Source: Candidatus Saccharimonadota bacterium
GTDB taxonomy: Bacteria; Patescibacteriota; Saccharimonadia; Saccharimonadales; Saccharimonadaceae
Reading direction: 5' to 3'
Assembly: GCA_026395405.1 (NCBI GenBank)
Contig: JAPLYU010000003.1
Location: forward strand, 89,401 to 153,400
Length of the DNA: 64,000 nucleotides
Shown here: positions 41,583 through 60,709 of the stretch, one piece after another
How the letters are laid out: every line of letters starts with the position of its first letter
Position numbering within the stretch: position 1 is the stretch's first letter
Translations under genes and position numbers: made by a program
The notes under the pieces: generated by a model
Seen by the model: the letters and a program-made list of their open reading frames with translations, nothing else
What the model was told of the DNA's origin: nothing
The model's database searches: none

Positions 41583-42550
41583 TTAACCCATGCGGTAACC
41601 TGAATTTGACCCGAATCCGTACCGTCCGAACACTGGGAATTAAACTTAATCTCACCATTTGCAGCTTTCGGTCCTTCTAATTTCCATAACAATTTTAAAC
41701 CAGTCATATCTATTGAAGTTCCATTTGCGAATATTCCATCACTCCACGTGCACATACCCCAGTTAACCCAACTGAATCCATCCCAATACGCCTGCGAAAT
41801 TGTAGCTCCTACAAGACTAGCGCACTCAACAATGGACGTTGTCCTTGTAAGAAGGACTTTAATGTTTGTGTGAGATACGGATATATTATTTATCGTGAAT
41901 GCACAACCTGGACTGCCACAGCCCCCTGGAATATTATTTGTTATTAAGATGTCAGAGCCATTAAATGCTGTTGTTGCTGTGGCAATATTATTATTCAGCT
42001 TTGTCCAGCCACCGTTTGTCATGTCACAATAAGCCGAATATGCTGTTGCGGCAGGTTTAATCAAGTAATACCCGTCCCCAGTTGAATCACCTGCGTTTAA
42101 AATAGCCAAGCACGACGTATTTGTAAGACTGCTAAGTAAAGGTTTGTTACTTTCTGTAATGCGATAGCTTAACTTACCGTCACTACTTATGGCGTTTAAA
42201 AAAAATGTATAAGGGCTTGTCGTATTATTAGCCTGATAGTAATTAAACGTATTGCCATTAGTTACTCTTAAGCACTTATTCGTATCAGAATCCGGACTGG
42301 CACTACAGTCTGTCGAAATTGTAGTTGGATATTTATCATTATGAGCTTGAAATAGCTTTAGGGCAGTTGATGCATCAGCCAAATCGGATTGGAGTGATGC
42401 GGTTTTAGCTTTTTGGGTGAATCCGGTATATGCGAAAATCAATATTGCAGACAGAACTCCAATTATAAAAATAACCAATACAAGCTCAACCAAAGTAAAA
42501 CCGCTCGAGAAACGATATTTACGCTTGGAACATCCAAGAGGTAAATTCAT
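41579..42550 (-). CDS. Type IV pilin-like protein with fibrinogen-like domain
   Basis: The 323-residue protein has a prepilin signal (RFSSGFTLVELVLVIFIIGV), a pilin stalk with a Cys pair, and a C-terminal region from about residue 165 with GDGYYLIKPAATAYSAYCDM and TNGGWTKL, the pattern of a fibrinogen C-like/COLFI start. Several Cys follow. It leads a three-gene pilin operon with two LamG-type pilins, so the tip or minor pilins may carry different binding domains. Assembly genes (pilB, pilC, pilD) are not in the window. Confidence 0.83.
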   Translation of the reverse strand: MNLPLGCSKRKYRFSSGFTLVELVLVIFIIGVLSAILIFAYTGFTQKAKTASLQSDLADASTALKLFQAHNDKYPTTISTDCSASPDSDTNKCLRVTNGNTFNYYQANNTTSPYTFFLNAISSDGKLSYRITESNKPLLSSLTNTSCLAILNAGDSTGDGYYLIKPAATAYSAYCDMTNGGWTKLNNNIATATTAFNGSDILITNNIPGGCGSPGCAFTINNISVSHTNIKVLLTRTTSIVECASLVGATISQAYWDGFSWVNWGMCTWSDGIFANGTSIDMTGLKLLWKLEGPKAANGEIKFNSQCSDGTDSGQIQVTAWVK

Positions 42551-42611
42551 GAGTTAAGTATAAGCCAGATGGTTTTGTATCGCAAGAAAACATCACCCAT
42601 TCCCCTCATGC

Positions 42612-42617
42612 TATAAT
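42612..42617 (+). promoter_or_regulatory. -10 box of the 42624 gene, leaderless
   Basis: TATAAT ends 6 bases before the ATG at 42624, with no SD. Confidence 0.55.
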
Positions 42618-42623
42618 TAATTC

Positions 42624-43226
42624 ATGCAACCCGACCAACAGGAAAACACCCCTCAATCAGACGAACCAACCGAAATGTATGCTCCAACTGTAACCGAAAA
42701 TGACGCAGAGTCAGCCCCACAGCAGCCTGCTGTTCAGGAAAAAGTGCCTCAAAAACCAGCAGACACCGAACCGGTTCATTGGAGTGCTAATGAAACAATT
42801 GACGCAGAAAAGGGTGGATTATGGTTTATTGCTTTAATTGTTGTTGCATTGGCCCTTATCGCCGGTGACATTTTCCTACTAAAAGACTTTACTTTTTCAA
42901 TCCTGGTAGTTGTTATGGTCGCAGTTATCGTCCTTTATTCGCGTCGACCGGCGCGGATGATTGACTACACTTTAAGTGGAGAACAAGGACTATACATTGG
43001 TGAAAAACTTTATCATTTCAGCGAGTTCAAGGCTTTTGGGTTAATTCGCGACCAGGGCCAACACTCGATACTGCTAATTCCTGTAAAAAGGTTCGCAACT
43101 GGCGTATCTGTCTATTTCCCAGAGGAATCCGGTGAAAAAATCGTAGACATTTTAGGCGCCAGATTGCCGATGCAAGAATTAAAACTAGACATGATTGACG
43201 TAATTGTCCGCAAATTACGGCTTTAA
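42624..43226 (+). CDS. Hypothetical membrane protein with two central spans
   Basis: The 200-residue protein has a disordered Gln/Pro/Glu-rich N-terminus (1-55), two adjacent spans (about 68-87 and 90-110) with a short turn, and a C-terminal soluble domain (about 118-200) containing GEQGLYIGEKLYHFSEFKAFGL. This is an EbsA/PH-like layout, as in small bacterial membrane proteins of unknown function. The start is leaderless. It precedes the tRNA-Arg region. Confidence 0.6.
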   Translation: MQPDQQENTPQSDEPTEMYAPTVTENDAESAPQQPAVQEKVPQKPADTEPVHWSANETIDAEKGGLWFIALIVVALALIAGDIFLLKDFTFSILVVVMVAVIVLYSRRPARMIDYTLSGEQGLYIGEKLYHFSEFKAFGLIRDQGQHSILLIPVKRFATGVSVYFPEESGEKIVDILGARLPMQELKLDMIDVIVRKLRL

Positions 43227-43283
43227 CTAAAAACCACCTTTCTATCACCTGTCGCCAGATTGTGTTACAATATTTTATGTTCG

Positions 43284-43297
43284 TCGCAATATTGTGA
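43284..43297. promoter_or_regulatory. Palindrome TCGCAATATTGTGA, copy 1
   Basis: Lies in the region between the predicted tRNA-Arg promoter (TACAAT near 43266) and the tRNA. An identical 14-mer occurs at 44611-44624, so the two copies bracket tRNA-Arg and unit U3. It could be an operator or an attachment-like site. Confidence 0.5.
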
Positions 43298-43360
43298 CAG
43301 AAAGCACCTTCTAGTTACATGAAGTGTAGGGCTGCGCGTTTACGTGTGGCCCTATGTTTT

Positions 43361-43437
43361 GCACCCGTAGCTCAGCTGGATAGAGCGTCGGCTTGCGGAG
43401 CCGAAGGTCGTAGGTTCAAATCCTGTCGGGTGTACCA
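43361..43437 (+). tRNA. tRNA-Arg(GCG)
   Basis: 77 bases with encoded CCA. D arm GCTC/GAGC, anticodon stem TCGGC/GCCGA, loop TTGCGGA, anticodon GCG, T arm GTAGG/CCTGT. Bacteria usually read CGN with an inosine-modified ACG anticodon; GCG is uncommon. Confidence 0.93.
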
Positions 43438-43632
43438 ATAAAAAATACTCATCATAGATGGGTGTTTTTTATTGGTAAATTCGTTATGAATTTGAACGCT
43501 GTCGACCTTCGGAAAAGGTCGGAGGTGAGACTCGCAAGTCTGCGGGTCGCAAGGAAACCTTCCGATGGCAACTGGTTTGCCAATCGCGAAGTTTCGGGGT
43601 CGCGGAACGCGACCAAATCCTGTCGGGTGTTG
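43438..43632 (+). other. tRNA-3'-half mimic element downstream of tRNA-Arg
   Basis: A terminator hairpin (ACCAATAAAAAA/TTTTTTATTGGT) includes the tRNA CCA. An antisense-like T-arm segment ending TGAATTTGAAC lies at 43472-43497, then hairpins AGACT/AGTCT and GGTCGCG/CGCGACC, then an exact 17-base copy of the tRNA 3' half (43614-43630, same as 43417-43433). A short ORF here overlaps these structures and is not credible. Confidence 0.6.
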
Positions 43633-43640
43633 CTTATTCT

Positions 43641-43739
43641 TTGACAACCATCATATTTATGATAATATAACTTTCACTGGTCTTAGGACCCTAACCTGAC
43701 TACGTAGGTATCGTAGTAGCCCTTTTCAGGAAAGGAGTT
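43641..43739 (+). promoter_or_regulatory. Promoter and leader of unit U3
   Basis: TTGACA (43641), 16 bases, TAATAT (43663), then leader hairpin ACTACG/CGTAGT (43699-43717) and SD AAAGGAG. The stretch GAAAGGAGTT (43730-43739) is exactly complementary to the 3' UTR at 44579-44588. Confidence 0.7.
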
Positions 43740-43742
43740 AGC

Positions 43743-44192
43743 ATGCCGTTTGTGCAAGCATTCATAGCTTGTGATGCAGGCACCTGGAGAAAACCGGTTT
43801 TCAAGGGGCCGAAAGACCTTGAAGACCGACTTCTCATCGCCAACAACGAGATCGTCCCCGCTGCGCTCAACAGCCCCATGGGGCCGCTGACACCGGAGAG
43901 CATCGAGTTTGTTCCGATCTACGTGCTGCGTCGCGGCCTGAACGTCGACGTGGTCATCAAGATCGAGGCGGGTTTCTACGAGGACCGCAATGCGAACATC
44001 GCCAAGCGGTCGAAGAGCATCGAAGCAAGCCTGAGGATGCTCTTGCCCGACACGTCATTCGCCGTCATGACGGAATTGAAGGAGTTTGTGTGGAACTCAC
44101 AGACCCCTGACCCTTCGTTCGACGGAGACATGTCGATGCAAGCAGCGTTCCAACGCGCGGCCAACCAGCTCTTGGCACCGTTCATGCGCTGA
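43743..44192 (+). CDS. Unit U3 gene 1: GC-rich 149-residue protein
   Basis: First gene of a GC-rich three-gene unit. Soluble, no signal, with one Cys near the N-terminus (FIACDAGTW). The middle has strand-rich sequence VPIYVLRRGLNVDVVIKIEAGFY, and the C-terminus has SFDGDMSMQAAFQRAANQLLAPF, which could match the F-x2-M-type end of other unit proteins only weakly. SD AGGAAAGGAG is strong and lies 6-7 bases before the ATG. No known family. Confidence 0.65.
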   Translation: MPFVQAFIACDAGTWRKPVFKGPKDLEDRLLIANNEIVPAALNSPMGPLTPESIEFVPIYVLRRGLNVDVVIKIEAGFYEDRNANIAKRSKSIEASLRMLLPDTSFAVMTELKEFVWNSQTPDPSFDGDMSMQAAFQRAANQLLAPFMR

Positions 44193-46429: not shown

Positions 46430-47314
46430 ATGAAAGTTGCAATACACAGCGGACGATTTCACAGTGACGAAGCATTTGCTCTCGCCACTTTAAAGATGCT
46501 TGGACCAGTCGACTACGTTCGCACACGCGACGAATCCGTCATGCAATCATGCGACATGCGCGTGGATGTCGGTCGGAAATACAATCCCGTCACAAACGAT
46601 TTCGACCACCATCAACCCGAAGGTGCCGGAAAACGCGAAAATGGGATTCCTTATGACGCATTTGGACTGATTTGGAAAGAATATGGGGCAAAAGTATGCG
46701 ATTCTAAAGAGGTCGCAATTATGGTCGACAAACGGCTGGTGCAGGTTATGGATGCAATCGACTCTGGTTTTGACTTGTTCGAACAAAAAGTAGACGGCGT
46801 TCGCCCATTTGGAATCGACAAAGCCGTTGATGATTTAATGCCATCATGGAAATCAAACCCATCACCAGAACAGATTGACAAAGCGTTTGAGTCGGCAATA
46901 ATTCTGGCTTCACAAGTGTTAGAAAATGTTATCAACAGAGCTCGTGACCGCGTAGATGCAGATAATTATGTACGGAATGCCATCAAAAATGCGGCGGACG
47001 AGCGACTAATAATCCTAGATCAATATGCTCCTTGGGAAGAGGTAGTTGTCAAAGAAGCCCCCAATGCACTATTCGTTGTACTTCCAGCATGGCCAAGTCC
47101 AGAAGACGATTGGGCGTTAAAGGCTATCTCGGTAAAATTAGGATCATACGAAAATCGCAAAAAACTGCCAGCCAACTGGGCAGGCAAAATAAATTCTGAA
47201 CTAGCCGAAGTTACTGGTGTAAAGGACGCAAAATTTTGCCATGCGTCCCGTTTCCTAGCAATCGCCAAGTCCAAAGAGGGTTGTTTGCAACTAGCCGAAC
47301 TGGCACTGAAATAA
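46430..47314 (+). CDS. MYG1-family DHH-like nuclease
   Basis: The 294-residue protein is a DHH-type metal-dependent phosphoesterase of the MYG1/GAMM1 family, related to 3'-5' RNA exonucleases. HSGRFHSDEAFALATL opens the domain (His and Asp ligands), then MRVDVGRK, DFDHHQPEGAG (DHH), IPYDAFGLIWKEYG, and a C-terminal W-P-S-P region (LPAWPSPEDDW) with FCHASRFLA. A tRNA-Ser lies just upstream; the start needs no SD. It may process RNA or nucleotides. Confidence 0.93.
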   Translation: MKVAIHSGRFHSDEAFALATLKMLGPVDYVRTRDESVMQSCDMRVDVGRKYNPVTNDFDHHQPEGAGKRENGIPYDAFGLIWKEYGAKVCDSKEVAIMVDKRLVQVMDAIDSGFDLFEQKVDGVRPFGIDKAVDDLMPSWKSNPSPEQIDKAFESAIILASQVLENVINRARDRVDADNYVRNAIKNAADERLIILDQYAPWEEVVVKEAPNALFVVLPAWPSPEDDWALKAISVKLGSYENRKKLPANWAGKINSELAEVTGVKDAKFCHASRFLAIAKSKEGCLQLAELALK

Positions 47315-47328
47315 TCAAATAATATAAC

Positions 47329-47352
47329 ACCCTAACGCTTCGCAATCAGGGT
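47329..47352 (+). terminator. Weak terminator after the MYG1 gene
   Basis: ACCCT and AGGGT pair around a 14-base loop, followed by TTTATT. This separates the MYG1 gene from unit U4. Confidence 0.4.
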
Positions 47353-47446
47353 TTATTCCCTTATACTGTTATTTGACCTTTTACATAATGCTATGGCCAC
47401 GAGGGAACCTGAGTTTCAAACCCGAAACGTACATCGGAGGATAAGC

Positions 47447-47644
47447 ATGACAAATAAGTCGATTCACCAAGTGGACACGCCGGAAGGGGCAAAGCCCGAA
47501 GTTCACGGAAGTCAGTGCAAACGCTGCAGGAAGTTCAGCGACCCTTCCCCCAACAACGACTGTTCGCCTGATGCCAGGGCCGTCGTCGCCGAACTCGAGG
47601 CGGTCAGCCCGAACTTTCAGTGCGACATTGCCGACAAGTTCTAG
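47447..47644 (+). CDS. Unit U4 gene 1: 65-residue Cys-rich protein
   Basis: GC-rich. The ATG at 47447 follows CGGAGGATAAGC; a longer frame from 47393 begins before this SD. The product has CKRCRKFSDPSPNNDC and a final FQCDIADKF Cys, i.e. a CxxC...C...C pattern that could bind zinc. It resembles the 52114 product of unit U9. A promoter TTGACC-n-TAATGCTAT lies at about 47372. No known family; it is one of two small zinc-ribbon-like proteins in U4. Confidence 0.6.
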   Translation: MTNKSIHQVDTPEGAKPEVHGSQCKRCRKFSDPSPNNDCSPDARAVVAELEAVSPNFQCDIADKF

Positions 47645-47669
47645 GGCGGCAACGCCCAGGGGAGTTCTA

Positions 47670-47873
47670 ATGGATTTGATGACCCGAGAAGAGGCAATCG
47701 ACAAGGGATTACCGTGGGCTTGCCTCTGTTGCAAGGGCGTCTTTCCAGACGTAAACGGGGCTCCGCCCACTTCGGTCTGTATCTGCAAAGGCATGGATAT
47801 CGTCGACCTGCGTATCCACAACCTGCGGTATTACTTTCACGAGGCAATCATTCCACAAGGGGTGATGTCATAG
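47670..47873 (+). CDS. Unit U4 gene 2: 67-residue CxCC/CxC protein
   Basis: GC-rich. CAGGGGAG lies 5 bases before the ATG. The product contains CLCCKGVF and CICKGMD, a C-x-C-C/C-x-C pattern typical of a knuckle that could hold zinc, followed by a short helical C-terminus (LRIHNLRYYFHEAI). It follows gene 1 by 25 bases. The unit ends at the double hairpin E1. Function is unknown. Confidence 0.58.
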   Translation: MDLMTREEAIDKGLPWACLCCKGVFPDVNGAPPTSVCICKGMDIVDLRIHNLRYYFHEAIIPQGVMS

Positions 47874-47885
47874 CATCAAGGTATA

Positions 47886-47980
47886 GGCGGAGAGCCTGAA
47901 GTTTGCGGCTCTCCGCCCGGTGGCGCGAGTTTAGTTGATGTGCGTAATGCTTTCCAACTGGGCCCGCGCCCTTTTATTTT
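47886..47980 (+). terminator. Conserved double-hairpin 3' element E1 (unit U4)
   Basis: Hairpin 1 GGCGGAGAGCC/GGCTCTCCGCC (47886-47917), then hairpin 2 GGCGCG/CGCGCC (47922-47970) whose apex GTTGATGTGCGTAATGCT-n-CCAAC matches copies at 52353 and 52906, then a T run. Arms covary while the apex stays. Confidence 0.75.
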
Positions 47981-47993
47981 TGTAACTTTCTTG

Positions 47994-47999
47994 TATAAT
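47994..47999 (+). promoter_or_regulatory. -10 box of unit U5
   Basis: TTGTATAATATACTCAACT, the unit promoter motif repeated at 48912 (weaker), 49772, 50690 and 52427, each followed by a structured leader of about 60-80 bases. Confidence 0.7.
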
Positions 48000-48043
48000 A
48001 TACTCAACTGTCCAAGCCACGCTTGTTGATGGTGGTATAACAG

Positions 48044-48086
48044 CGCTGACCAAGGGTCAGCGTTTAAAAATCTATGTAAGGAGAGT
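48044..48086 (+). promoter_or_regulatory. Leader stem-loop and SD of unit U5
   Basis: CGCTGACC/GGTCAGCG (8 perfect pairs, loop AAG), then GTTTAAAAA and SD GTAAGGAGAG. The segment 48074-48086 (ATGTAAGGAGAGT) is complementary over 13 bases to the U5 3' UTR (48862-48874). Confidence 0.75.
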
Positions 48087-48090
48087 ACTG

Positions 48091-48438
48091 ATGGAAATCA
48101 TGCTCGTGTCAGAGCCTTCCGTTCTGGGAAAAGTCCGTAGAATCGGCGATATCCAGGAAGCACTTCTGGTCTTCGTGAACGACAACCTCGGCCTCCGGGG
48201 TGTCCCCGAGTTCCAGGAACTCCTGCGCGACAGCGTCAGCATTGCGCTGGAAATCCATGTCAGTCAGATTCAAATCGGTGGTGAGCCCGAGCATCTCTAC
48301 AGAGACGGCATCAAGCTTATCGTCAGTGAAGCGGTTTTCAGCCGCCTCAAAAGACGAGTTGGCGGCGTTGCACGCTTTGGCGAAATCATCGAAGCCGCCG
48401 TCGACGTGTACGCTCATCAACGGGACAACACCAGCTGA
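48091..48438 (+). CDS. Unit U5 gene 1: paralogous GC-rich unit protein
   Basis: The 115-residue product is soluble, without signal or Cys. Its C-terminal part GIKLIVSEAVFSRLKRRV shows the pattern shared by other unit proteins (G-x3-[YLW]-x-V-x4-F-x2-L/M). The first half is more diverged (EIMLVSEPSVLGKVRRIGD, then ALLVFVNDNLG). SD GTAAGGAGAG lies 5-6 bases before the ATG. G/C-ending codons dominate. No known family or catalytic motif. It is the first gene of the array of seven units at 47-53 kb. Confidence 0.65.
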   Translation: MEIMLVSEPSVLGKVRRIGDIQEALLVFVNDNLGLRGVPEFQELLRDSVSIALEIHVSQIQIGGEPEHLYRDGIKLIVSEAVFSRLKRRVGGVARFGEIIEAAVDVYAHQRDNTS

Positions 48439-48479
48439 CAACAACCATTGACCCGCATCCCACAACAAAAGGGGCAACT

Positions 48480-48803
48480 ATGGTTCGGTACGTCTTGTTC
48501 CACCTGCATGAGGATGGAGAGACCCGAGAGACCGTCGAGTACGTAGGTCCTGACCTGGTCGCAAACGTCGGCGTTGACGAGCTGACCTACCTCATTTCGG
48601 CGTTGATCTTCGGTCGAATCGCCGACGAGCAGTTGATTCATCGCCACCAGTCCTACGAGCCGGTAATCGTCAGCGACACCGAAGAGGGAGCCGAGATTTG
48701 CCTGGTGTCCGACGCCTACATCGCTATCATGGACGAGTTCGAAGACCTGTGTGGAACATGCCACGGCGTGCTCGAACTCATCCACCGGTCCAGTCGCAAC
48801 TAG
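48480..48803 (+). CDS. Unit U5 gene 2: MRYxL-type unit paralog
   Basis: The 107-residue protein starts VRYVLFHLHEDGETRETVEY and continues with GVDELTYLISALIF, then the C-terminal signature GAEICLVSDAYIAIMDEF. The N-terminal beta hairpin and LT-helix line up with the 49854 and 51126 products, so this is a real paralog. There are two Cys near the end (CGTCHG). It starts 41 bases after gene 1, after a GGGGCAACT-type SD. Function unknown. Confidence 0.65.
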   Translation: MVRYVLFHLHEDGETRETVEYVGPDLVANVGVDELTYLISALIFGRIADEQLIHRHQSYEPVIVSDTEEGAEICLVSDAYIAIMDEFEDLCGTCHGVLELIHRSSRN

Positions 48804-48818
48804 GACCAACATCCGATT

Positions 48819-48874
48819 GAGGCTTGGCGGGTTCGCCCGCCAAGCCTCTCGGCCACCAGAAACTCTCCTTACAT
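48819..48874 (+). terminator. Terminator hairpin and anti-SD segment of unit U5
   Basis: GAGGCTTGGCGGG/CCCGCCAAGCCTC with a TTCG loop (48819-48848), then ACTCTCCTTACAT (48862-48874), which is complementary over 13 bases to the U5 leader SD. No hammerhead follows here. Confidence 0.7.
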
Positions 48875-48911
48875 TTTCTCTAATTGTATTTATTTCGTTT
48901 TTATTGTATTG

Positions 48912-48917
48912 TATATT
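48912..48917 (+). promoter_or_regulatory. -10 box of unit U6
   Basis: GTATATTTAACTATTTGAG resembles the unit promoter motif, with TATATT as -10. Leader of about 60 bases follows. Confidence 0.55.
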
Positions 48918-48947
48918 TAACTATTTGAGTCTGACTCATTGGTCGTA

Positions 48948-48986
48948 ACACTGGCAACCTGCCGGTGTTTCAAATCGTAAGGAGAG
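48948..48986 (+). promoter_or_regulatory. Leader stem-loop and SD of unit U6
   Basis: ACACTGGCA/TGCCGGTGT (9 pairs, loop ACC), then TTCAAATC and SD GTAAGGAGAG (48977-48986), complementary over 10 bases to the 3' UTR at 49672-49681. Confidence 0.7.
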
Positions 48987-48989
48987 CCT

Positions 48990-49352
48990 GTGAACATCAC
49001 GCTTTTGTCCAACACCGCACCGGTGGTAGGCGTCGACGATTTCGATAGTCGTCGATCAATACGGGTGTCCATTCCTTTCATGTACGAATTGTGGGACAAA
49101 GCAGACTTCCCACCATATCTGGTGATGCAGATCTGCAAATGGTTCGGACTCGATCCTAAGGAGGTCAAACTCCGAACCCGCTTCGACGACAGTCGGATCG
49201 ATGGCATCCACTTGTGGGTCGACAAGTTGACCTACATGGTCATGGAGAGTGACTTCGAAGAAGCCGTTTCTACCATCGTCAAGGACTACAGCGTACGGTG
49301 CGACATCGAAGACATCGTGACCGGCATGGAAGACTCAAACATCGGACTGTAA
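48990..49352 (+). CDS. Unit U6 gene 1: GC-rich unit protein (GTG start)
   Basis: The 120-residue protein starts at a GTG 3-4 bases after GAGAGCC; the SD GTAAGGAGAG is slightly close. The C-terminal signature is GIHLWVDKLTYMVMESDF, fitting the shared pattern. The first half has RRSIRVSIPFMYELW and WFGLDPKEVKLRTRFDDSRID. No Cys-based motif, no membrane span. G/C-ending codons. Function unknown. Confidence 0.62.
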   Translation: MNITLLSNTAPVVGVDDFDSRRSIRVSIPFMYELWDKADFPPYLVMQICKWFGLDPKEVKLRTRFDDSRIDGIHLWVDKLTYMVMESDFEEAVSTIVKDYSVRCDIEDIVTGMEDSNIGL

Positions 49353-49363
49353 AGGGAGGAAAC

Positions 49364-49696
49364 ATGGAGTACTTCCTAATCAAACAAGGTACGGGCGAGT
49401 ACATCGCTTACCGAGGGGTGAATCTGGCCGACATGAGCCAAATCAACCACCTGACCGACGCGATCGTTTCGGCGGTCATCGACGTCATAGAAGACGCGCC
49501 TTGGCTGTCTATCAGCCGAGAGGACGTCATCGATGACCAGACCCTCTCGGGGTACGGAGCCAGGATCTACGTCAACCATCACGCGTACGACCGGGCATCG
49601 AGGCGATTCCAGAAGCTCGTGCGCTTCGCAAGAATCCCTTCGTGGGTTCTCACCCGCCAAGCCTTCCGGGACTCTCCTTACAAATTACTTCTTTGA
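49364..49696 (+). CDS. Unit U6 gene 2: MRYxL-type paralog with an altered 3' end
   Basis: SD GGGAGGAAAC is close to the ATG at 49364. N-terminal MEYFLIKQGTGEYIAYRG and SQINHLTDAIVSAVIDVI, then GARIYVNHHAYDRASRRF, match the family layout. After about residue 91 the frame continues into what is 3' UTR in the neighbours: IPSWVLTRQAFRDSPYKLLL is encoded by the residual terminator and anti-SD, and the TGA stop lies inside hammerhead 1. The left arm of the terminator found in U5, U7 and U8 is missing. The C-terminus is therefore probably an accidental fusion. Confidence 0.6.
   Translation: MEYFLIKQGTGEYIAYRGVNLADMSQINHLTDAIVSAVIDVIEDAPWLSISREDVIDDQTLSGYGARIYVNHHAYDRASRRFQKLVRFARIPSWVLTRQAFRDSPYKLLL
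49672..49681 (+). promoter_or_regulatory. Anti-SD segment in the 3' UTR of unit U6
   Basis: CTCTCCTTAC, exactly complementary to the U6 leader SD (48977-48986), directly 5' of hammerhead 1. Confidence 0.65.
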
Positions 49697-49738
49697 ATGT
49701 ATGTTCAAACTGATGAGTCCAAAAGGACGAAAAGTAAT
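49684..49738 (+). ncRNA. Hammerhead ribozyme 1 (end of unit U6)
   Basis: Stem III ATTACTT/AAGTAAT (7 perfect pairs), cleavage nucleotide C (49691), stem I TTTGAA/TTCAAA with loop TGTATG, core CTGATGA, stem II GTCC/GGAC with loop AAAA, core GAA. Open stem III (type III topology). Predicted cleavage is between 49691 and 49692. Confidence 0.93.
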
Positions 49739-49771
49739 CTATAGGGTATTGAATTATTTAAGTGTTTATGC

Positions 49772-49777
49772 TATAAT
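49772..49777 (+). promoter_or_regulatory. -10 box of unit U7
   Basis: GCTATAATATACCTAACTAT is the unit promoter motif; leader of about 66 bases before the SD. Confidence 0.7.
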
Positions 49778-49812
49778 ATACCTAACTATGTGAGTTTGCT
49801 CTGTAGTCGTAG

Positions 49813-49851
49813 CACCGGCCATCGGTCGGTGTTTCACAATGTAAGGAGAAA
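49813..49851 (+). promoter_or_regulatory. Leader stem-loop and SD of unit U7
   Basis: CACCGGCC/GGTCGGTG (8 pairs, one G-U, loop ATC), then TTTCAC and SD. The segment AATGTAAGGAGAAA (49838-49851) is complementary over 14 bases to the U7 3' UTR (50591-50604). Confidence 0.75.
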
Positions 49852-49853
49852 AC

Positions 49854-50177
49854 GTGAGATACGTGTTGCATCTGATGTGCGGCGAAGACGAAGCCTCGGA
49901 AACGGTGGTTTTCGAATCCGACAATACCGGCAACGTCAATCTTGGCACTTTGACAAAGTGCGCACTGTTCTTTGTACTCGACTTCCTCGAGGACGCCAAG
50001 AAAAAGGACCCTAAAGGACTCTACCTGCCGATTCAGCGCAAGCCGAGCGAGTCGGGTGATGAGTATTGGGTCCTTCGCGACGGGTTCTTCGAACTGCGTC
50101 CCGTATTCAGGGACGAAGTCCAGAGACTCTACGACATGAACGTGGATCGAAGGGTCAAGCCCTGTTCCAAAGTGTAA
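49854..50177 (+). CDS. Unit U7 gene 1: MRYxL-type unit paralog
   Basis: The 107-residue protein (GTG start just after GTAAGGAGAAAAC) begins MRYVLHLMCGEDEASETVVF, then NLGTLTKCALFFVLDFL and the C-terminal GDEYWVLRDGFFELRPVF. These three blocks line up with the 48480 and 51126 products. Two Cys, no signal. G/C-ending codons. Likely a beta hairpin, a helix, a strand and a helix. No known function. Confidence 0.65.
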   Translation: MRYVLHLMCGEDEASETVVFESDNTGNVNLGTLTKCALFFVLDFLEDAKKKDPKGLYLPIQRKPSESGDEYWVLRDGFFELRPVFRDEVQRLYDMNVDRRVKPCSKV

Positions 50178-50203
50178 CAAAGTCGAACAAAGAAGGAGTG
50201 ATT

Positions 50204-50512
50204 GTGCCTAAGGTCATAGTCAGAGAGAAAGAGACCCCGAACGAGTTCGACATGACCTTCACGGGCTATGACGAAGTCGAACTGTGGTTCATGGTGTTCA
50301 CCGCCGTCACCGACGAGATCAACAAGATCCTCCGAGACGCCAAAGACGACGAACTGTCCGGCAGCGACCCCTCACTGCTGAAGTTCGTGGCAACGCCGGG
50401 TGGAGACATCAAGTACTTCGTCACCCACGACGCCTTCGAACTGCTGAGCGAGGAGTTCAGCCGCCCGGAGGAATGGGCCAGCTTTGGCCTTGTGCCCACC
50501 GTACAGGACTGA
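50204..50512 (+). CDS. Unit U7 gene 2: GC-rich unit protein
   Basis: The 102-residue protein starts GTG at 50204, 6 bases after GAAGGAG. The N-terminus MPKVIVREKETPNEFDMTFT differs from the MRYxL pattern, but the C-terminal GDIKYFVTHDAFELLSEEF retains the shared signature. The middle helix is FMVFTAVTDEINKIL. No Cys. It follows gene 1 by 26 bases. Function unknown. Confidence 0.6.
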   Translation: MPKVIVREKETPNEFDMTFTGYDEVELWFMVFTAVTDEINKILRDAKDDELSGSDPSLLKFVATPGGDIKYFVTHDAFELLSEEFSRPEEWASFGLVPTVQD

Positions 50513-50528
50513 TTCTGTGTCAGGATAT

Positions 50529-50576
50529 AGGCTTGGCGGGATTGCCGCTAAATCGGGCAATTTGCCCGCCAAGCCT
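50529..50576 (+). terminator. Terminator hairpin of unit U7
   Basis: AGGCTTGGCGGG/CCCGCCAAGCCT around a further small hairpin (ATTGCCG/CGGGCAAT). Same arms as U5 and U8. Confidence 0.7.
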
Positions 50577-50590
50577 TCACGGCGAACGGA

Positions 50591-50604
50591 TTTCTCCTTA
50601 CATT
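50591..50604 (+). promoter_or_regulatory. Anti-SD segment in the 3' UTR of unit U7
   Basis: TTTCTCCTTACATT, perfectly complementary over 14 bases to the U7 leader (49838-49851). It lies 3 bases 5' of hammerhead 2. Confidence 0.7.
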
Positions 50605-50607
50605 TTT

Positions 50608-50658
50608 CTCTTATTTGAATGTGTTTTCAAACTGACGAGCCCAAAAGGGCGAAAAGAG
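50608..50658 (+). ncRNA. Hammerhead ribozyme 2 (end of unit U7)
   Basis: Stem III CTCTT/AAGAG, cleavage nucleotide A (50613), stem I TTTGAA/TTCAAA with loop TGTGTT, core CTGACGA, stem II GCCC/GGGC (covaries from GTCC/GGAC), loop AAAA, GAA. The C at the variable core position 7 is allowed. Cleavage between 50613 and 50614. Confidence 0.92.
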
Positions 50659-50689
50659 TAAAGTGATTGTAAGAATATAAACAAAGTTG

Positions 50690-50695
50690 TATAAT
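50690..50695 (+). promoter_or_regulatory. -10 box of unit U8
   Basis: TTGTATAATATGTTCAACT, unit promoter motif; leader of about 74 bases. Confidence 0.7.
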
Positions 50696-50734
50696 ATGTT
50701 CAACTATCTGAGGTAATACCGATATAGTGTACGG

Positions 50735-50774
50735 ACGCTGGCCTATGGCTAGCGTTTAACAATTCGTAAGGAGA
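50735..50774 (+). promoter_or_regulatory. Leader stem-loop and SD of unit U8
   Basis: ACGCTGGCC/GGCTAGCGT (9 pairs, one G-U, loop TAT), then TTAACAATTC and SD GTAAGGAGAG (from 50766). GTAAGGAGA is complementary over 9 bases to 51591-51599. Confidence 0.7.
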
Positions 50775-50779
50775 GTCGC

Positions 50780-51097
50780 ATGCGTCTGTTTTACTATGTG
50801 TTCGGCAGCAACATGGCCGGCACCACGGGCCAGTACGCCAAGGTCTTCCAGACCAGCCACGACAACGTTGCTGGGCACCGCAGGTTTTCGGCGTTTCTGT
50901 ACGGCCATATCGAGCATTTGGCTGGCAGTGAAGCCGTCGGCCTGATCGAGCGATACGACCAGTTCGATCACAGCACGTTTTTCGCGCTGGAACCAAGCTT
51001 GTACCTCCGTCTGGTACCTGACTTTGACAAGTTCTTCACGGGCTGTGTCGGTCAGTTCGACCAAATCATGGAGGCATACCAGATCGAAGACATCTGA
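50780..51097 (+). CDS. Unit U8 gene 1: GC-rich unit protein
   Basis: The 105-residue protein starts at ATG 50780, 5 bases after GTAAGGAGAG. It begins MRLFYYVFGSNMAGTT, a diverged MRYxL-type start, and ends with FFALEPSLYLRLVPDF plus a helical tail (FTGCVGQFDQIMEAY). The middle is FSAFLYGHIEHL. G/C-ending codons. Not recognised. The conserved C-terminal block is less exact than in its neighbours. Confidence 0.6.
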   Translation: MRLFYYVFGSNMAGTTGQYAKVFQTSHDNVAGHRRFSAFLYGHIEHLAGSEAVGLIERYDQFDHSTFFALEPSLYLRLVPDFDKFFTGCVGQFDQIMEAYQIEDI

Positions 51098-51125
51098 GCG
51101 GCACAACACATTCCTAGGAGGCTTC

Positions 51126-51509
51126 ATGAGGTATACCATCTCTAATATGTGCGATGAAGAGGCCACTCGCAAAAGCGTGGTGGTTCAGACCCCCGACCTG
51201 GTTCACATGTGCCAAGTCAACTACCTGACCAACCTCATCGCCAAGGAAGCCATGATCCGGATCCGTTTGATGTGGGACTGGGATGCCCCCCTGAACCGGT
51301 TTTACATCCCGACGGTGGACGATGACTTGGAGTCTTCGTTGCATGGCAACGGTCTCTACATGCCTTTGGACATGGACCCCAAGCGGGATGGCGCAGACCT
51401 GTACGTCATGGACTTCCTGTTTGTGGCGATGTCCGCCAAGATCAAGCCGATTGTGCACGAGTGCGTGTCCAAGTTCAAGCTGCGGGAGGCAATCGTCACG
51501 GCGGCGTGA
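51126..51509 (+). CDS. Unit U8 gene 2: MRYxL-type unit paralog
   Basis: The 127-residue protein starts at ATG 51126 after AGGAGGCTTC. It has MRYTISNMCDEEATRKSVVV, then PDLVHMCQVNYLTNLIAKEA and GADLYVMDFLFVAMSAKI. The first and second blocks line up with the products at 48480, 49854 and 49364. Three Cys, no signal or span. G/C-ending codons. It is 28 bases after gene 1. Confidence 0.63.
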   Translation: MRYTISNMCDEEATRKSVVVQTPDLVHMCQVNYLTNLIAKEAMIRIRLMWDWDAPLNRFYIPTVDDDLESSLHGNGLYMPLDMDPKRDGADLYVMDFLFVAMSAKIKPIVHECVSKFKLREAIVTAA

Positions 51510-51523
51510 CCCCTTCCGACTGG

Positions 51524-51575
51524 AGGCTTGGCGGGTTCTGACGAACCCACTTGTGGGTTCTCGCCCGCCAAGCCT
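51524..51575 (+). terminator. Terminator hairpin of unit U8
   Basis: AGGCTTGGCGGG/CCCGCCAAGCCT with an inner GAACCCAC/GTGGGTTC hairpin. The same architecture as U7. Confidence 0.7.
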
Positions 51576-51590
51576 TCACGGCAGCGGATT

Positions 51591-51599
51591 TCTCCTTAC
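51591..51599 (+). promoter_or_regulatory. Anti-SD segment in the 3' UTR of unit U8
   Basis: TCTCCTTAC is complementary over 9 bases to the U8 leader SD, and lies 5 bases 5' of hammerhead 3. Confidence 0.6.
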
Positions 51600-51604
51600 A
51601 TTTC

Positions 51605-51655
51605 CTCTTTTTTGAATGTGTATTCAAACTGATGAGTCCAAAAGGACGAAAAGAG
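51605..51655 (+). ncRNA. Hammerhead ribozyme 3 (end of unit U8)
   Basis: Stem III CTCTT/AAGAG, cleavage nucleotide T (51610), stem I TTTGAA/TTCAAA with loop TGTGTA, core CTGATGA, stem II GTCC/GGAC, loop AAAA, GAA. Cleavage between 51610 and 51611. Confidence 0.92.
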
Positions 51656-51690
51656 ACAAACTTATGTTTTTTTATTTCATATAACTGAAC

Positions 51691-51734
51691 TATACTATTA
51701 CCACCTTAACAATTCGGAATGTTGGGGGTGGGGC
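51691..51734 (+). promoter_or_regulatory. Promoter and SD-containing hairpin of unit U9
   Basis: TATACT (51691), then CCACC-n-AACA pairs with TGTT-n-GGTGG, so the SD-like GGGGGTGGGG lies inside a stem. The layout differs from the hairpin-then-SD leaders of U5-U8. Confidence 0.5.
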
Positions 51735-52127
51735 ATGAAAGGCAAGCTGTTGGCTTTCGTCACTATCCTGTCGATAGGAGGACTGTCGTCCACGGTGGGA
51801 GTGGCGACGTTCTGGTATGGAAGTGGACTGGTCGGCGAGTCGTGGGCGTCCTTGCCGATGATCGTGATTGGTCCAATCTTCGCGATACTCTTCGTCTACA
51901 CGTGTTATGTATACACCTACCTGGGGACAAGGGCTCTGGCGTACATGCTTGCCATATACGCCATCGGCTTCGCCATCACCTTTTTGCTGGTGGTGCTAGG
52001 TGCTTCCGCAGATGGTTTCAAGGTGTGGTTGTTCCCCGTTCTTCTCGGCCTTTCGATTACCGAGATAGCGGCCATCGTGTCGTCTGTAGTGGTTACTACC
52101 ATGAGAGGGAGACATGCCAGAGCCTAA
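51735..52127 (+). CDS. Unit U9 gene 1: four-span membrane protein
   Basis: The 130-residue protein has four hydrophobic segments (about 5-27, 40-62, 68-90 and 98-122), short loops and a basic C-terminus MRGRHARA. No catalytic motif. G/C-ending codons place it with the units rather than host genes. The next small gene overlaps its end by 14 bases. No known family. Confidence 0.62.
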   Translation: MKGKLLAFVTILSIGGLSSTVGVATFWYGSGLVGESWASLPMIVIGPIFAILFVYTCYVYTYLGTRALAYMLAIYAIGFAITFLLVVLGASADGFKVWLFPVLLGLSITEIAAIVSSVVVTTMRGRHARA

Positions 52128-52290
52128 ATACGACTTCAAGACCAAGCCTGCCATCATCCCTGAAGAAGGCGATCAATGCCAAGACTGCATCCAGTATGAC
52201 TGGTGTAACGCCGGGCGCAAAGAAGCCGTTGCCAGAGGCGAAAAGGCCGATCCAAAGGCCCGTTGCATGTTCTGTAGCCAAGAGTGGTAG
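52114..52290 (+). CDS. Unit U9 gene 2: 58-residue Cys-rich small protein
   Basis: Not resolved as a separate gene by length filters but well supported: GAGAGGGAGAC lies just before the ATG at 52114. The sequence has CQDCIQYDWC, then CMFCSQEW, a CxxC...C...CxxC pattern of a possible zinc-binding module, similar in style to the 47447 product. It overlaps gene 1 in another frame by 14 bases. The unit ends at E2. Confidence 0.6.
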   Translation: MPEPKYDFKTKPAIIPEEGDQCQDCIQYDWCNAGRKEAVARGEKADPKARCMFCSQEW

Positions 52291-52316
52291 GCCACCGCCG
52301 GGCCTACAAAGGTATT

Positions 52317-52410
52317 GGCGGAGAGCCTGAAACATATGGCTCTCCGCCCCATGGCGCGAGTTCTAGTTGATGTGCGAAAGCTTTCCAATTAGGCCCGCGC
52401 CTCTTTTATT
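52317..52410 (+). terminator. Conserved double-hairpin 3' element E2 (unit U9)
   Basis: Hairpin 1 GGCGGAGAGCC/GGCTCTCCGCC (52317-52348), then hairpin 2 GGCGCG/CGCGCC (52353-52401) with apex GTTGATGTGCGAAAGCTTTC, then a T-rich tract. Same apex as E3. Confidence 0.75.
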
Positions 52411-52426
52411 TTTGTAATTATTCTGT

Positions 52427-52432
52427 TATAAT
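52427..52432 (+). promoter_or_regulatory. -10 box of unit U10
   Basis: GTTATAATATGCTTAACCTAT, the unit promoter motif; leader of about 74 bases. Confidence 0.7.
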
Positions 52433-52441
52433 ATGCTTAAC

Positions 52442-52512
52442 CTATCCGGCTAACAACGGATAGCCGCAAACCGTACGTCAGCATACCGCTGACGTTTCAC
52501 AATCAGGGAGGT
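52442..52512 (+). promoter_or_regulatory. Two-hairpin leader and SD of unit U10
   Basis: Stem-loop A CTATCCG/CGGATAG (52442-52463) and B ACGTCAGC/GCTGACGT (52475-52495), then TTCACAATC and SD GGGAGGT (52506-52512), complementary over 7 bases to 52852-52858. Confidence 0.72.
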
Positions 52513-52515
52513 CCG

Positions 52516-52839
52516 ATGAGACCGATAAGGCTCGAGCTGCGCGCGATACCCAGGGACGCCGAACACGGCAAGGCCGGGGACGTCAAGTTCTACGAAGTGC
52601 CCGATGAAGGCAACAACTACGAGGCTGACCTCATAATCGACCTGCTGATTCGGCTTCGTCGGCTGGTCGGTGGCACCAAGCGAGTGCACCGGGTCCACAT
52701 GGGCCGCGACGACAAGACCGGCGCTGTCTACTACGAGGTCAGCAACGGCGTCTTTGCTATGCTGGAACCTCAGTTCGTCAGGGCTGTCAACAACTCTGTC
52801 GACCACGTCCACAAGGTGAGAGCCAAGTACAAGGGCTAA
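52516..52839 (+). CDS. Unit U10: single-gene unit protein
   Basis: The 107-residue protein starts at ATG 52516, 3-4 bases after GGGAGGT. The C-terminal signature is GAVYYEVSNGVFAMLEPQF. The N-terminus IRLELRAIPRDAEH and the LIIDLLIRLRRL helix are family-like but diverged. It is basic overall with no Cys. G/C-ending codons. Function unknown. Confidence 0.64.
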   Translation: MRPIRLELRAIPRDAEHGKAGDVKFYEVPDEGNNYEADLIIDLLIRLRRLVGGTKRVHRVHMGRDDKTGAVYYEVSNGVFAMLEPQFVRAVNNSVDHVHKVRAKYKG

Positions 52840-59360: not shown

Positions 59361-59389
59361 TACTATGTGAATTGGCACTTATTGTTTTT

Positions 59390-59442
59390 TCGCTTTTCGT
59401 CCTTTTGGACTCATCAGTTTGAATACACATTCAAATAAGCGA
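59390..59442 (-). ncRNA. Hammerhead ribozyme 4 (end of unit U11)
   Basis: On the minus strand: stem III TCGCTT/AAGCGA, cleavage nucleotide A, stem I TTTGAA/TTCAAA with loop TGTGTA, core CTGATGA, stem II GTCC/GGAC, loop AAAA, GAA. Stem III differs from the other three but pairs perfectly. Predicted cleavage is between 59436 and 59435. Confidence 0.93.
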
Positions 59443-59445
59443 TTA

Positions 59446-59462
59446 TGACAAGCAGACAAATA
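59446..59462 (-). promoter_or_regulatory. Anti-leader segment in the 3' UTR of unit U11
   Basis: TATTTGTCTGCTTGTCA (minus strand) is complementary over 17 bases (one G-U) to the U11 leader at 60640-60656. It sits where the anti-SD lies in other units, directly 5' of hammerhead 4. Confidence 0.7.
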
Positions 59463-59478: not shown

Positions 59479-59508
59479 AGGCAGCCGGTTAGAAAACCCG
59501 GACTGCCT
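59479..59508 (-). terminator. Terminator-like hairpin of unit U11
   Basis: AGGCAG-CCGG/CCGG-CTGCCT on the minus strand, between the last U11 stop and the anti-leader segment. Confidence 0.6.
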
Positions 59509-59524: not shown

Positions 59525-59842
59525 CTAGCTGTGATTGAACGTCAAGTCCAACGGTATGTACGCTTGAGCGTCCAACTCACGGAACTTCTTGAAGGTGTTG
59601 AGCCTATCCCTTTCGTTGCTGAAGCGGTTAATCTCCACTGTCAGCTTGCCGATGACAACGTGAAAGAGGGTTGGCTCTGCATCTTCGGGAGCGAAGTAGT
59701 CGATGTGCTGGGCGATGTGCACTATACCGATTAGACCCTGAAGGATCTGACTGTCCGTTGTCTCTTCGGTAACGTGCAGCCGCGCCACCAACGTCTCTCC
59801 GACGGGGCACAACTGGAACGGCACGAACTCCTTCGGCGGCAT
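59525..59842 (-). CDS. Unit U11 gene 4: GC-rich protein of the IGKL type
   Basis: The 105-residue protein starts after AAAGGAGGTGAAATAGG. It has VHIAQHIDYFAPED then FHVVIGKLTVEINRFSNERD, a strand-rich core. It lines up with the two upstream genes: an IDYF/ISKL-like helix, then a Pro, then xFxVVIGKLxVxI. Soluble, no Cys except one. It is the last gene of U11. No known family. Confidence 0.6.
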   Translation of the reverse strand: MPPKEFVPFQLCPVGETLVARLHVTEETTDSQILQGLIGIVHIAQHIDYFAPEDAEPTLFHVVIGKLTVEINRFSNERDRLNTFKKFRELDAQAYIPLDLTFNHS

Positions 59843-60639: not shown

Positions 60640-60709
60640 TATCTGTCTGCTTGTCAAGGTGCCTTAGGGCGTGACAAACAGATTGTCTCAAACCTTAAAG
60701 TAGTATTAT
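60640..60709 (-). promoter_or_regulatory. Promoter and leader hairpin of unit U11
   Basis: TAATACT (about 60703-60709, minus strand) as -10; leader stem CTGTTTGTCA/TGACAAGCAG (60647-60681). The 3' side of the stem (60640-60656) is complementary to the U11 3' UTR segment 59446-59462. Confidence 0.6.

What the first reader, a model, noticed from the sequence alone, without database searches (positions are those of the whole stretch)
49684..51655. Three tandem hammerhead ribozymes at the 3' ends of small-protein units (plus a fourth at 59390)
All four copies have the full hammerhead layout: core CUGANGA, stem II GNCC/GGNC with an AAAA loop, GAA, a 6-bp stem I closed by a short loop, and stem III directly abutting the cleavage nucleotide. 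Stem III is ATTACTT/AAGTAAT, CTCTT/AAGAG (twice) and TCGCTT/AAGCGA, and stem II is GUCC/GGAC or GCCC/GGGC, so pairing is kept while sequence changes. That covariation is direct evidence of selection on the structure. Having them at the ends of diverse bacterial small-gene units is, to my knowledge, not a described arrangement.
Basis: partly seen in the sequence, partly recalled or inferred. Interest (0 to 1): 0.95.

Follow-up and report, generated by a model that had tools for sequence, protein, structure and literature searches.

The report
Self-cutting tails on looped bacterial mRNAs
A likely Saccharibacteria chromosome carries hammerhead ribozyme motifs right behind small genes of unknown function, and in the four copies here the 9 to 17 bases just before the predicted cut are complementary to the leader of the same unit, so the ribozyme would trim a message whose two ends likely pair, which gives bacterial hammerheads, whose role is an open question, a testable job.

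Summary
Four type III hammerhead motifs lie at 49684-49738+, 50606-50660+, 51603-51657+ and 59389-59443-, each behind small genes without a Pfam family. Rfam RF00008 lists three of them, all below its cut-off. A model from this lineage finds nine copies in the genome and copies in 91 of 392 genomes of its order; all three stems covary and 0 of 141 distinct copies have G at the cleavage-site H position. The host is an 855-kb, 97%-complete genome, likely Saccharibacteria, not a phage.

The new point: the segment between the 3' hairpin and the ribozyme is complementary to an element in the leader of the same unit. In units fetched after the idea arose, 17 of 101 pass a shuffle test that 1.3 should pass; 0 of 50 ordinary ORFs do. 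Sequences change while pairing is kept. I propose that the ribozyme makes the 3' end of an mRNA whose freed tail zips onto its own leader, controlling translation or decay. Cleavage, pairing in the cell and the effect are untested, and most units show no clear helix. Clustered hammerheads beside genes were known from prophages.

The parts
49684..49738 (+). Hammerhead ribozyme motif 1, type III layout; predicted cut after 49691 (H = C)
   Evidence: (43.1 bits)
50606..50660 (+). Hammerhead motif 2; predicted cut after 50613 (H = A); core CUGACGA with GCCC/GGGC stem II
   Evidence: not listed for RF00008 at E<=1
51603..51657 (+). Hammerhead motif 3; predicted cut after 51610 (H = U)
   Evidence: (25.6 bits)
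59389..59443 (-). Hammerhead motif 4; predicted cut after 59436 (H = A)
   Evidence: (37.0 bits)
48977..48986 (+). Leader element GTAAGGAGAG of unit 1 (ribosome-binding site of the 48990 ORF), complementary over 10 bases to 49672-49681
49672..49681 (+). Tail of unit 1 (CTCTCCTTAC), 2 nt before hammerhead 1; it fits the leader of the preceding unit slightly better (12 bases)
49838..49851 (+). Leader element AATGTAAGGAGAAA of unit 2 (ribosome-binding site of the 49854 ORF), 14 pairs with 50591-50604
   Evidence: mean pairing probability 0.96
50591..50604 (+). Tail of unit 2 (TTTCTCCTTACATT), 1 nt before hammerhead 2
50766..50774 (+). Leader element GTAAGGAGA of unit 3 (ribosome-binding site of the 50780 ORF), 9 pairs only
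   Evidence: 110 of 200 shuffles do as well
51591..51599 (+). Tail of unit 3 (TCTCCTTAC), 3 nt before hammerhead 3; it fits the leader of unit 2 better
60640..60656 (-). Leader element TGACAAGCAGACAGATA of the minus-strand unit, 16 Watson-Crick pairs and 1 G-T with 59446-59462
   Evidence: (0 of 200 shuffles)
59446..59462 (-). Tail TATTTGTCTGCTTGTCA of the minus-strand unit, 2 nt before hammerhead 4
50530..50575 (+). 3' hairpin of unit 2 (GGCTTGGCGGG/CCCGCCAAGCC), no T run after it
   Evidence: no + strand terminator-like site in 47300-52600
51525..51574 (+). 3' hairpin of unit 3 (same outer arms, inner hairpin)
59480..59507 (-). 3' hairpin of the minus-strand unit (GGCAGTCCGGG..CCGGCTGCC)
49749..49777 (+). 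Promoter-like site (TTGAAT-17-TATAAT) after hammerhead 1
50667..50695 (+). Promoter-like site (TTGTAA-17-TATAAT) after hammerhead 2
48990..49352 (+). Small ORF of unit 1 (120 aa), no Pfam match
49364..49696 (+). Second ORF of unit 1 (110 aa); its stop lies inside hammerhead 1 and the 5' arm of the usual 3' hairpin is missing
49854..50177 (+). First small ORF of unit 2 (107 aa), no Pfam match
50204..50512 (+). Second small ORF of unit 2 (102 aa), no Pfam match
50780..51097 (+). First small ORF of unit 3 (105 aa), no Pfam match; only itself found in the protein database, a 47% identical stretch in G017
51126..51509 (+). Second small ORF of unit 3 (127 aa), distant paralogue of the 48480 and 49364 ORFs
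59525..59842 (-). Last small ORF before hammerhead 4 (105 aa), no Pfam match
48074..48086 (+). Leader element ATGTAAGGAGAGT of the preceding unit (ORFs 48091 and 48480), complementary over 13 bases to 48862-48874; this unit has no hammerhead
48862..48874 (+). Tail ACTCTCCTTACAT of the preceding unit, no hammerhead after it

Best explanation
Type III hammerhead motifs sit behind small genes of unknown function in a likely Saccharibacteria chromosome, each after a tail complementary to its own unit's leader, and are predicted to cut the nascent message there so that the freed tail would likely zip onto the leader and close the mRNA into a loop. Shown: the motif, its covariation, its place after a 3' fold that mostly lacks a T run, and a leader-tail complementarity that is kept while its sequence changes. 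Inferred: that the RNA cuts itself in the cell, that this makes the mRNA's 3' end, that leader and tail pair in cis, and that the pairing matters for translation or decay. Where the leader element is the ribosome-binding site (the three plus-strand units here), the most likely effect is fold-back repression of translation, as in icaR. Where it lies further upstream (the TTGACAAGCAGACA class), the likely effect is protection of both ends or refolding of a structured leader.
For: Hammerhead: in 26 aligned copies 15 of 17 pairs have changes on both sides; the H position is C 100, A 24, T 17, G 0 in 141 distinct copies, CUGANGA in 134 of 141. 3'-end role: a fold stronger than nearly all random windows lies upstream in 76 of 141 units (9.1 expected), TTTTT before the motif in 12 of 141; no + strand terminator-like site in 47300-52600, promoter-like sites after copies 1 and 2. 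Leader-tail helix: discovery set, 16 of 38 units at <=10/200 shuffles (2.1 expected; one of the 16, 49684, through a hairpin arm and not its leader). Later units: 9 of 101 at 0/300 (0.3 expected), 17 of 101 at <=3/300 (1.3 expected); 105 given, 4 without a usable leader; one of the 17, L179, I had already seen. Ordinary ORFs of the window: 0 of 50 at <=3/300 (0.7 expected), 7 of 50 at <=30/300 (5.1 expected). Covariation: 35 distinct leader-tail pairs of one class have 75 doubly changed cells, against a mean of 26.2 and a maximum of 44 in 500 permutations; 7 of 12 divergent tails fit their own unit best among 141. Rank test: 18 of 103 later units in the top five of 141 tails, 3.7 expected. In this genome TTTGACAAGCAGACA with <=2 mismatches occurs 12 times: 9 are leader or tail copies of hammerhead units, 2 are leaders of units without one, 1 was not looked at. 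Folding gives the helix a mean probability >=0.5 in 18 of 26 units folded, of 141 held.
Against: Most units show no clear helix: 72 of 101 later units are above 30/300 shuffles, perhaps partly because leaders were called automatically. In the window, unit 3 has only 9 pairs and its tail fits unit 2's leader better; unit 1's tail fits the preceding unit's leader better (12 against 10 bases). C4:321897 has 10 pairs with a mismatch. In one search the own leader is strictly best in 18 of 27 and tied in 3, but 6 fit another leader of the same genome better, and the leaders were placed where they fit their own tail, which favours the own pair. In one search elements were also chosen by fit; one search is fairer but starts from the same chosen units. 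8 of 26 folded units give the helix a probability below 0.3. G-T (28) is not commoner than A-C (30) among non-Watson-Crick cells of the 100 best hits, so RNA pairing is not proved over DNA inverted repeats. Two units of this genome and one in the window keep leader and tail without a hammerhead. Five loci of other classes of the phylum do not show the helix. No cleavage or expression data exist.
Confidence: 0.55

Rival explanations
1. The hammerhead is only a terminator substitute: it cuts read-through RNA and leaves a hairpin-capped 3' end, and the leader-tail complementarity serves something else, such as pairing in trans between units that share the same element.
For: No terminator-like site on the + strand of the array; in other classes of the phylum a hairpin by eye but no leader-tail helix (4 of 5 loci); folds before type III hammerheads of viral contigs, 11 of 45 against 2.9 expected; 6 of 27 tails fit another unit's leader of the same genome better, among them unit 3 of the window.
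Against: Own leader strictly best in 18 of 27, though the leaders were placed by fit; divergent tails fit their own unit, 7 of 12.
Confidence: 0.22
2. The complementary segments are DNA inverted repeats that bound mobile gene cassettes, and the hammerhead is a passenger.
For: Patchy presence (91 of 392 genomes of the order; no match in 15 of 28 genomes of the genus); fast-changing genes between more conserved ends; A-C as frequent as G-T in imperfect pairs.
Against: The conserved module extends beyond both repeats (promoter and leader upstream, hammerhead downstream), so the repeats are not terminal; the repeat sequence varies widely with pairing kept.
Confidence: 0.12
3. The hammerheads are relics of phage or selfish elements without a present role.
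For: Bacterial hammerheads are tied to phages (PMC3088659, PMC6155905, passages); some units have no hammerhead; C4:491065 has an A-C mismatch in stem III.
Against: Cleavable H position in 141 and CUGANGA in 134 of 141 distinct copies, from many families; stems covary.
Confidence: 0.07
4. Retrozyme-like RNA circles: tandem cuts free unit-length RNAs that are ligated into circles.
For: Three motifs about 0.9-1 kb apart and type III layout as in plant retrozymes (PMC6155905, passages).
Against: No RtcB ligase found in the 97% complete genome, while the same search rings in 9 of 14 control genomes; promoter-like sites between the motifs; many genomes have a single copy.
Confidence: 0.04

Closest known systems
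Clustered hammerheads in prophages (Perreault et al. 2011, PMC3088659; abstract, section 6 and part 1 of 2 of section 11 read)
   Same: Several hammerheads flank single genes or short gene blocks; types I, II and III; tandem sets cleave in vitro and one set in E. coli.
   Different: There in prophages; here in chromosomes of a small-genome bacterial order, behind a 3' hairpin, with a tail complementary to the leader of the same unit.
Rfam RF00008 Hammerhead_3
   Same: Three stems, core and open stem III match.
   Different: The copies score below the curated cut-off; stem II loop is four bases and loop I carries UGNGUA-like letters.
icaR mRNA of Staphylococcus aureus, 5'-UTR/3'-UTR pairing (PMC3868564; abstract and section 14 read)
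   Same: A 3'-UTR segment pairs with the ribosome-binding site of the same mRNA.
   Different: There one gene, no ribozyme, RNase III cuts the duplex; here many units, a self-cleaving motif after the tail, and varied sequences.
hok mRNA (named in PMC3868564 section 14; its details are recalled)
   Same: 5' and 3' ends of one mRNA pair and hold it inactive.
   Different: hok is activated by trimming of the 3' end; here the ribozyme would leave the tail on.
RAGATH-10 RNA (Rfam RF03147)
   Same: Weak matches in leaders of four units of the TTGACAAGCAGACA class, at the same place in each (alignment).
   Different: 28.8-33.5 bits against a cut-off of 41.2, E 0.017-0.23; the family covers only part of the leader.
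Plant retrozymes (PMC6155905, passages read)
   Same: Type III hammerheads in tandem copies in a DNA genome.
   Different: No RtcB found in this genome, protein-coding units. Long terminal repeats were not searched for.

Membership tests
Hammerhead ribozyme, type III layout (as a structural class) | Core CUGANGA and GAAA with three stems around it, stem I and II closed by loops, stem III open | tested here: met
   CUGANGA in 134 and GAA in 140 of 141 distinct copies
Hammerhead ribozyme, type III layout (as a structural class) | Cleavage-site NUH with H not G | tested here: met
   0 of 141 distinct copies have G; U before it in 140. The models used to find them hold no G there, a mild bias
Hammerhead ribozyme, type III layout (as a structural class) | Covariation of the stems | tested here: met
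Hammerhead ribozyme, type III layout (as a structural class) | Self-cleavage | not testable with these tools
   needs a transcript and Mg2+
Rfam family RF00008 as curated | Score at or above the gathering cut-off 48.5 | tested here: not met
   43.1, 37.0, 25.6 bits and one copy not listed; so filed by structure, not as a curated RF00008 member
icaR-like 5'/3' UTR control | 3'-UTR segment complementary to the ribosome-binding site of the same mRNA | tested here: met
   plus-strand units of the window, 10, 14 and 9 bases; weak in unit 3
icaR-like 5'/3' UTR control | Pairing represses translation and makes an RNase III substrate | not testable with these tools
   no expression data
RAGATH-10 (RF03147) | Score at or above the gathering cut-off 41.2 | tested here: not met
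   best 33.5 bits in L284
Prophage-borne hammerhead cluster | Lies in a phage or prophage | tested here: inconclusive
   0 of 6 small proteins given to PHROGs match (ten proteins in all); two aminoacyl-tRNA synthetases in the window; no near match among 50,697 phage records. This speaks against a prophage but is not an exhaustive test
Retrozyme / RNA circle | RtcB-type ligation of the cut ends | tested here: inconclusive
   RtcB not found in the own genome; other ligases were not searched

The most novel reading that the evidence does not exclude
A gene-expression device not described before: a self-cleaving ribozyme cuts the mRNA's 3' end so that its last bases are the complement of the mRNA's own leader, giving ribozyme-tailored, base-paired closed-loop mRNAs for a fast-evolving set of small genes across an order of ultrasmall bacteria.
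Probability: 0.45. Interest if true: 0.92.

Novelty: new variant of a known kind. Interest (0 to 1): 0.8.

Why it matters
[quoted passage not shown] Here the motif comes with a second, covarying element that suggests what it may be for: making the 3' end of an mRNA whose ends pair. That gives simple tests in vitro or in E. coli. It also shows a common RNA device in an order of small-genome bacteria (91 of 392 genomes) for which three literature searches gave no paper on hammerheads (the one paper listed is, by its title, about pig liver). And it ties the device to small proteins without a Pfam family (10 of 10 given).

Tried and rejected
RNA circles through RtcB: no RtcB found. Phage origin of the window: no near match in the phage collection, no PHROGs match for the 6 small proteins given. 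Same helix in viral-contig hammerheads: 8 of 45 type III and 4 of 61 type I are at 0/100 shuffles, but the type III hits are, by eye, hairpins matching other hairpins and not leaders, so I do not count them as the same thing. A switch in the structured leader (arm CTCATCTTGTG pairing with the ribosome-binding site): mean 6.04 against 5.87 for shuffled arms in 18 leaders, unsupported, while the other helix of that arm is strong, mean 11.04 (these 18 of 36 were the ones with the arm motif). G-T against A-C as an RNA/DNA discriminator: undecided, 28 against 30. RNAalifold of 31 leaders gave an empty structure. Empty-site comparison at the MYG1-ValRS interval: MYG1 is absent from the ten genus mates tested; the nearest, G017, has units beside ValRS, so no clean empty site was obtained. 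Helix beyond the order: not seen in L297, L298, L299, L301, L302 (54 to 197 of 200 shuffles as good); L300, of the order, shows it at 10/200.

Rows dropped: of the first relatives' matches, L159 to L162 and unlisted weak ones were left out of the 38-unit set (L161 and L162 look spurious, so the 23 of 60 genomes are rather 21; L159 and L160 are weak or short). Of 105 later units 4 had no usable leader; 2 of 143 units with under 450 bases upstream were left out of the cross-comparison of 141. One search lists only its best matches; 80 regions from that list were fetched, besides the loci it returned. One search folded 20 units of one class (fit >=12, within 1 kb) and 6 that I picked. An earlier count said 17 and 9; the recount is 18 and 8.

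Full report
Observation. The four hammerhead motifs are present at the stated places and are not chance: the core pattern has 4 exact matches in the window, against 0.01 expected with up to 3 mismatches. Rfam lists three of them as Hammerhead_3, all below the gathering score of 48.5 (43.1, 37.0 and 25.6 bits); the fourth, at 50606, is not listed at E <= 1. A covariance model from six copies (R1) finds nine clear copies in the whole genome: four in the window and five on another contig; two further rows have E above 2.

What the host is. The window lies in an 855-kb genome of 4 contigs, 97% complete. Arginyl- and valyl-tRNA synthetase families and a prepilin-type methylation motif are in the window, and there is no near match in 50,697 phage records. 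The same kind of unit sits in a record named Candidatus Saccharibacteria, JACRBB010000024.1 (L179).

Spread. With R1, 23 of 60 relatives (own genome included) have a match at E <= 0.01, two of them probably spurious. With R2, built from 26 copies, 91 of 392 genomes of the order and 61 of 156 genera have one at E <= 1e-6, and 39 of 379 genomes drawn over the phylum, members of the order included. Presence is patchy: no match in 15 of 28 genomes of the genus.

Selection on the ribozyme. In 26 aligned copies 93.9% of cells pair, 15 of 17 pairs have changes on both sides, and the covariation score is 0.715 against 0.238 shuffled and at most 0.129 when the partner is slid. Among 141 distinct copies the H position is never G (C 100, A 24, T 17), and CUGANGA is intact in 134. 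These copies were collected with models from the same family, so a bias towards intact copies is built in.

Anatomy of a unit. Promoter-like site, leader, ribosome-binding site, one or two small ORFs, stop codon, a hairpin, a short tail, and then the hammerhead. From stop codon to hammerhead it is 45 to 140 bases in 71 of 101 scored units, less in 6 and more in 24. The 95 bases upstream fold better than all but at most one of 30 random windows of the same locus in 76 of 141 units (9.1 expected), but only 12 of 141 have TTTTT in the 45 bases before the motif. In 47300-52600 no + strand terminator-like site was found (one on the - strand; shuffles give 5.1), and promoter-like sites follow copies 1 and 2. 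In 24000-43900, 38 terminator-like sites were found on both strands where shuffles give 20.3. So the hammerhead stands where a terminator would stand.

The leader-tail complementarity. The tail is the reverse complement of a stretch in the leader of the same unit. In the window: 10 bases in unit 1 (GTAAGGAGAG with CTCTCCTTAC), 14 in unit 2 (AATGTAAGGAGAAA with TTTCTCCTTACATT), 9 in unit 3, and 17 with one G-T in the minus-strand unit (TGACAAGCAGACAGATA with TATTTGTCTGCTTGTCA). The tails of units 1 and 3 fit the leader of a neighbouring unit better. I found this on 38 units; 16 of 38 are at <=10 of 200 shuffles where 2.1 are expected, one of them through a hairpin arm. I then tested it on units fetched afterwards, L179 excepted, whose match I had seen. 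Of 105 such units 101 had a usable automatically called leader: 9 were at 0/300 shuffles (0.3 expected), 17 at <=3/300 (1.3 expected), 23 at <=15/300 (5.4 expected), 29 at <=30/300 (10.4 expected), and 72 above that. The like test on 50 ordinary ORFs of the window, with the tail at a fixed distance after the stop, gave 0 at <=3/300 (0.7 expected), 5 at <=15/300 (2.7 expected) and 7 at <=30/300 (5.1 expected).

It covaries. One class has a leader element like TTTGACAAGCAGACA. Of 141 units, 36 fall in it, with 35 distinct pairs; 75 cells differ on both sides from the commonest pair, against 26.2 on average and 44 at most when tails are permuted. Since elements were chosen by their fit, a fairer test asks whether a divergent tail of these units fits its own unit best among all 141: 7 of 12 do. 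In a rank test over 141 units, 18 of 103 later units rank in the top five of 141 tails, against 3.7 expected, and 10 of 38 first units, against 1.3. In 27 units of six genomes that I chose for having several units, the own leader beats the other leaders of that genome in 18, ties in 3 and loses in 6; the leaders were placed by their fit to the own tail, so this favours the own pair. In the own genome the element occurs 12 times with <=2 mismatches, against 1 for the reversed pattern.

Units without a hammerhead. C4:325145 and C4:1764 keep leader and tail but no hammerhead follows, as does the unit at 48091-48803 in the window. So the helix can go without the ribozyme, which suggests that it has its own role, and also that the ribozyme is not needed everywhere.

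Structure prediction. Of 26 units folded from 60 bases before the leader element to the cut, 18 have a mean helix probability of at least 0.5 and 8 are below 0.3 (20 of one class, and 6 that I picked from the ribosome-binding-site kind, all 6 high).

Leader of the second class. In 18 of 36 leaders a helix like CACAAGGTGAG/CTCATCTTGTG was found (leaders printed). Four leaders match Rfam RAGATH-10 below its cut-off, at E 0.017 to 0.23 (one again). I recall, from no call, that RAGATH motifs were collected near genes associated with hammerhead and twister ribozymes.

The genes. Ten of ten ORFs given have no Pfam match, and two proteins found only themselves in a database of about 5.8 billion, though G017, a genus mate, encodes relatives. 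Several in the array are distant paralogues. In G017 (ValRS 91% identical) two units lie beside the same gene; the small proteins are 33 to 62% identical there, while the DNA is 76.6% identical over 49641-49851 and its best match to 51523-51653 is 79.4%.

How it most likely works. RNA polymerase passes the hairpin and the tail; the hammerhead forms and cuts, leaving the tail at the 3' end. The tail pairs with the leader. In the ribosome-binding-site class this would hide the site; in the other class it would close a structured leader and shield both ends. Cutting, pairing in vivo and effect are inferred. The DNA-repeat reading remains open, because G-T and A-C cells are equally frequent, but the conserved module extends beyond the repeats on both sides, which does not suit terminal repeats.

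Comparison with what is known. Perreault 2011 (PMC3088659; abstract, section 6 and part 1 of 2 of section 11 read) describes clustered hammerheads flanking genes in prophages and suggests transcript processing. The 2017 review (PMC6155905; passages) calls the role of prokaryotic hammerheads open. icaR (PMC3868564; abstract and section 14) is the best analogue of the helix. Searches for hammerhead with Saccharibacteria and ribozyme, with Patescibacteria, and with candidate phyla radiation gave 0, 1 (pig liver, by title) and 0 papers; other searches were seen as listings only. The library lacks most subscription journals and all preprints.

Verdict. A real set of hammerheads, a new variant of a known kind because of its coupling to a covarying leader-tail helix. 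Interest 0.8.

Noticed in passing
L284:1127-1205 (-), L200:1901-1976 (-), L282:2151-2226 (-), L192:990-1072 (+): Leaders of hammerhead units match Rfam RAGATH-10 below its cut-off, at the same place in the leader.
   Followed up: partly
viral contigs L001-L120: Type III hammerheads in viral contigs also tend to follow a strong fold (11 of 45, 2.9 expected), type I do not (4 of 61, 3.9 expected).
   Followed up: partly
L144 (G035:C3:267513-267567): A hammerhead lies 9 bases before the start of a TruB-like gene (name recalled from the protein letters), an unusual place for this family.
   Followed up: no
L180:6492-6546: A Legionellales MAG has a similar hammerhead whose upstream segment matches an upstream stretch with 0 of 200 shuffles as good.
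   Followed up: no
window 49364-49696: The second ORF of unit 1 runs through half of the usual 3' hairpin and stops inside the hammerhead, as if a deletion had fused gene and 3' end.
   Followed up: no
window 46430-47314: A MYG1 (UPF0160) family gene next to the array has no match in ten genus mates tested.
   Followed up: no
window 52516-52839: A further small gene with GGGAGGT before its start and ACCTCCC after its stop but no hammerhead.
   Followed up: no
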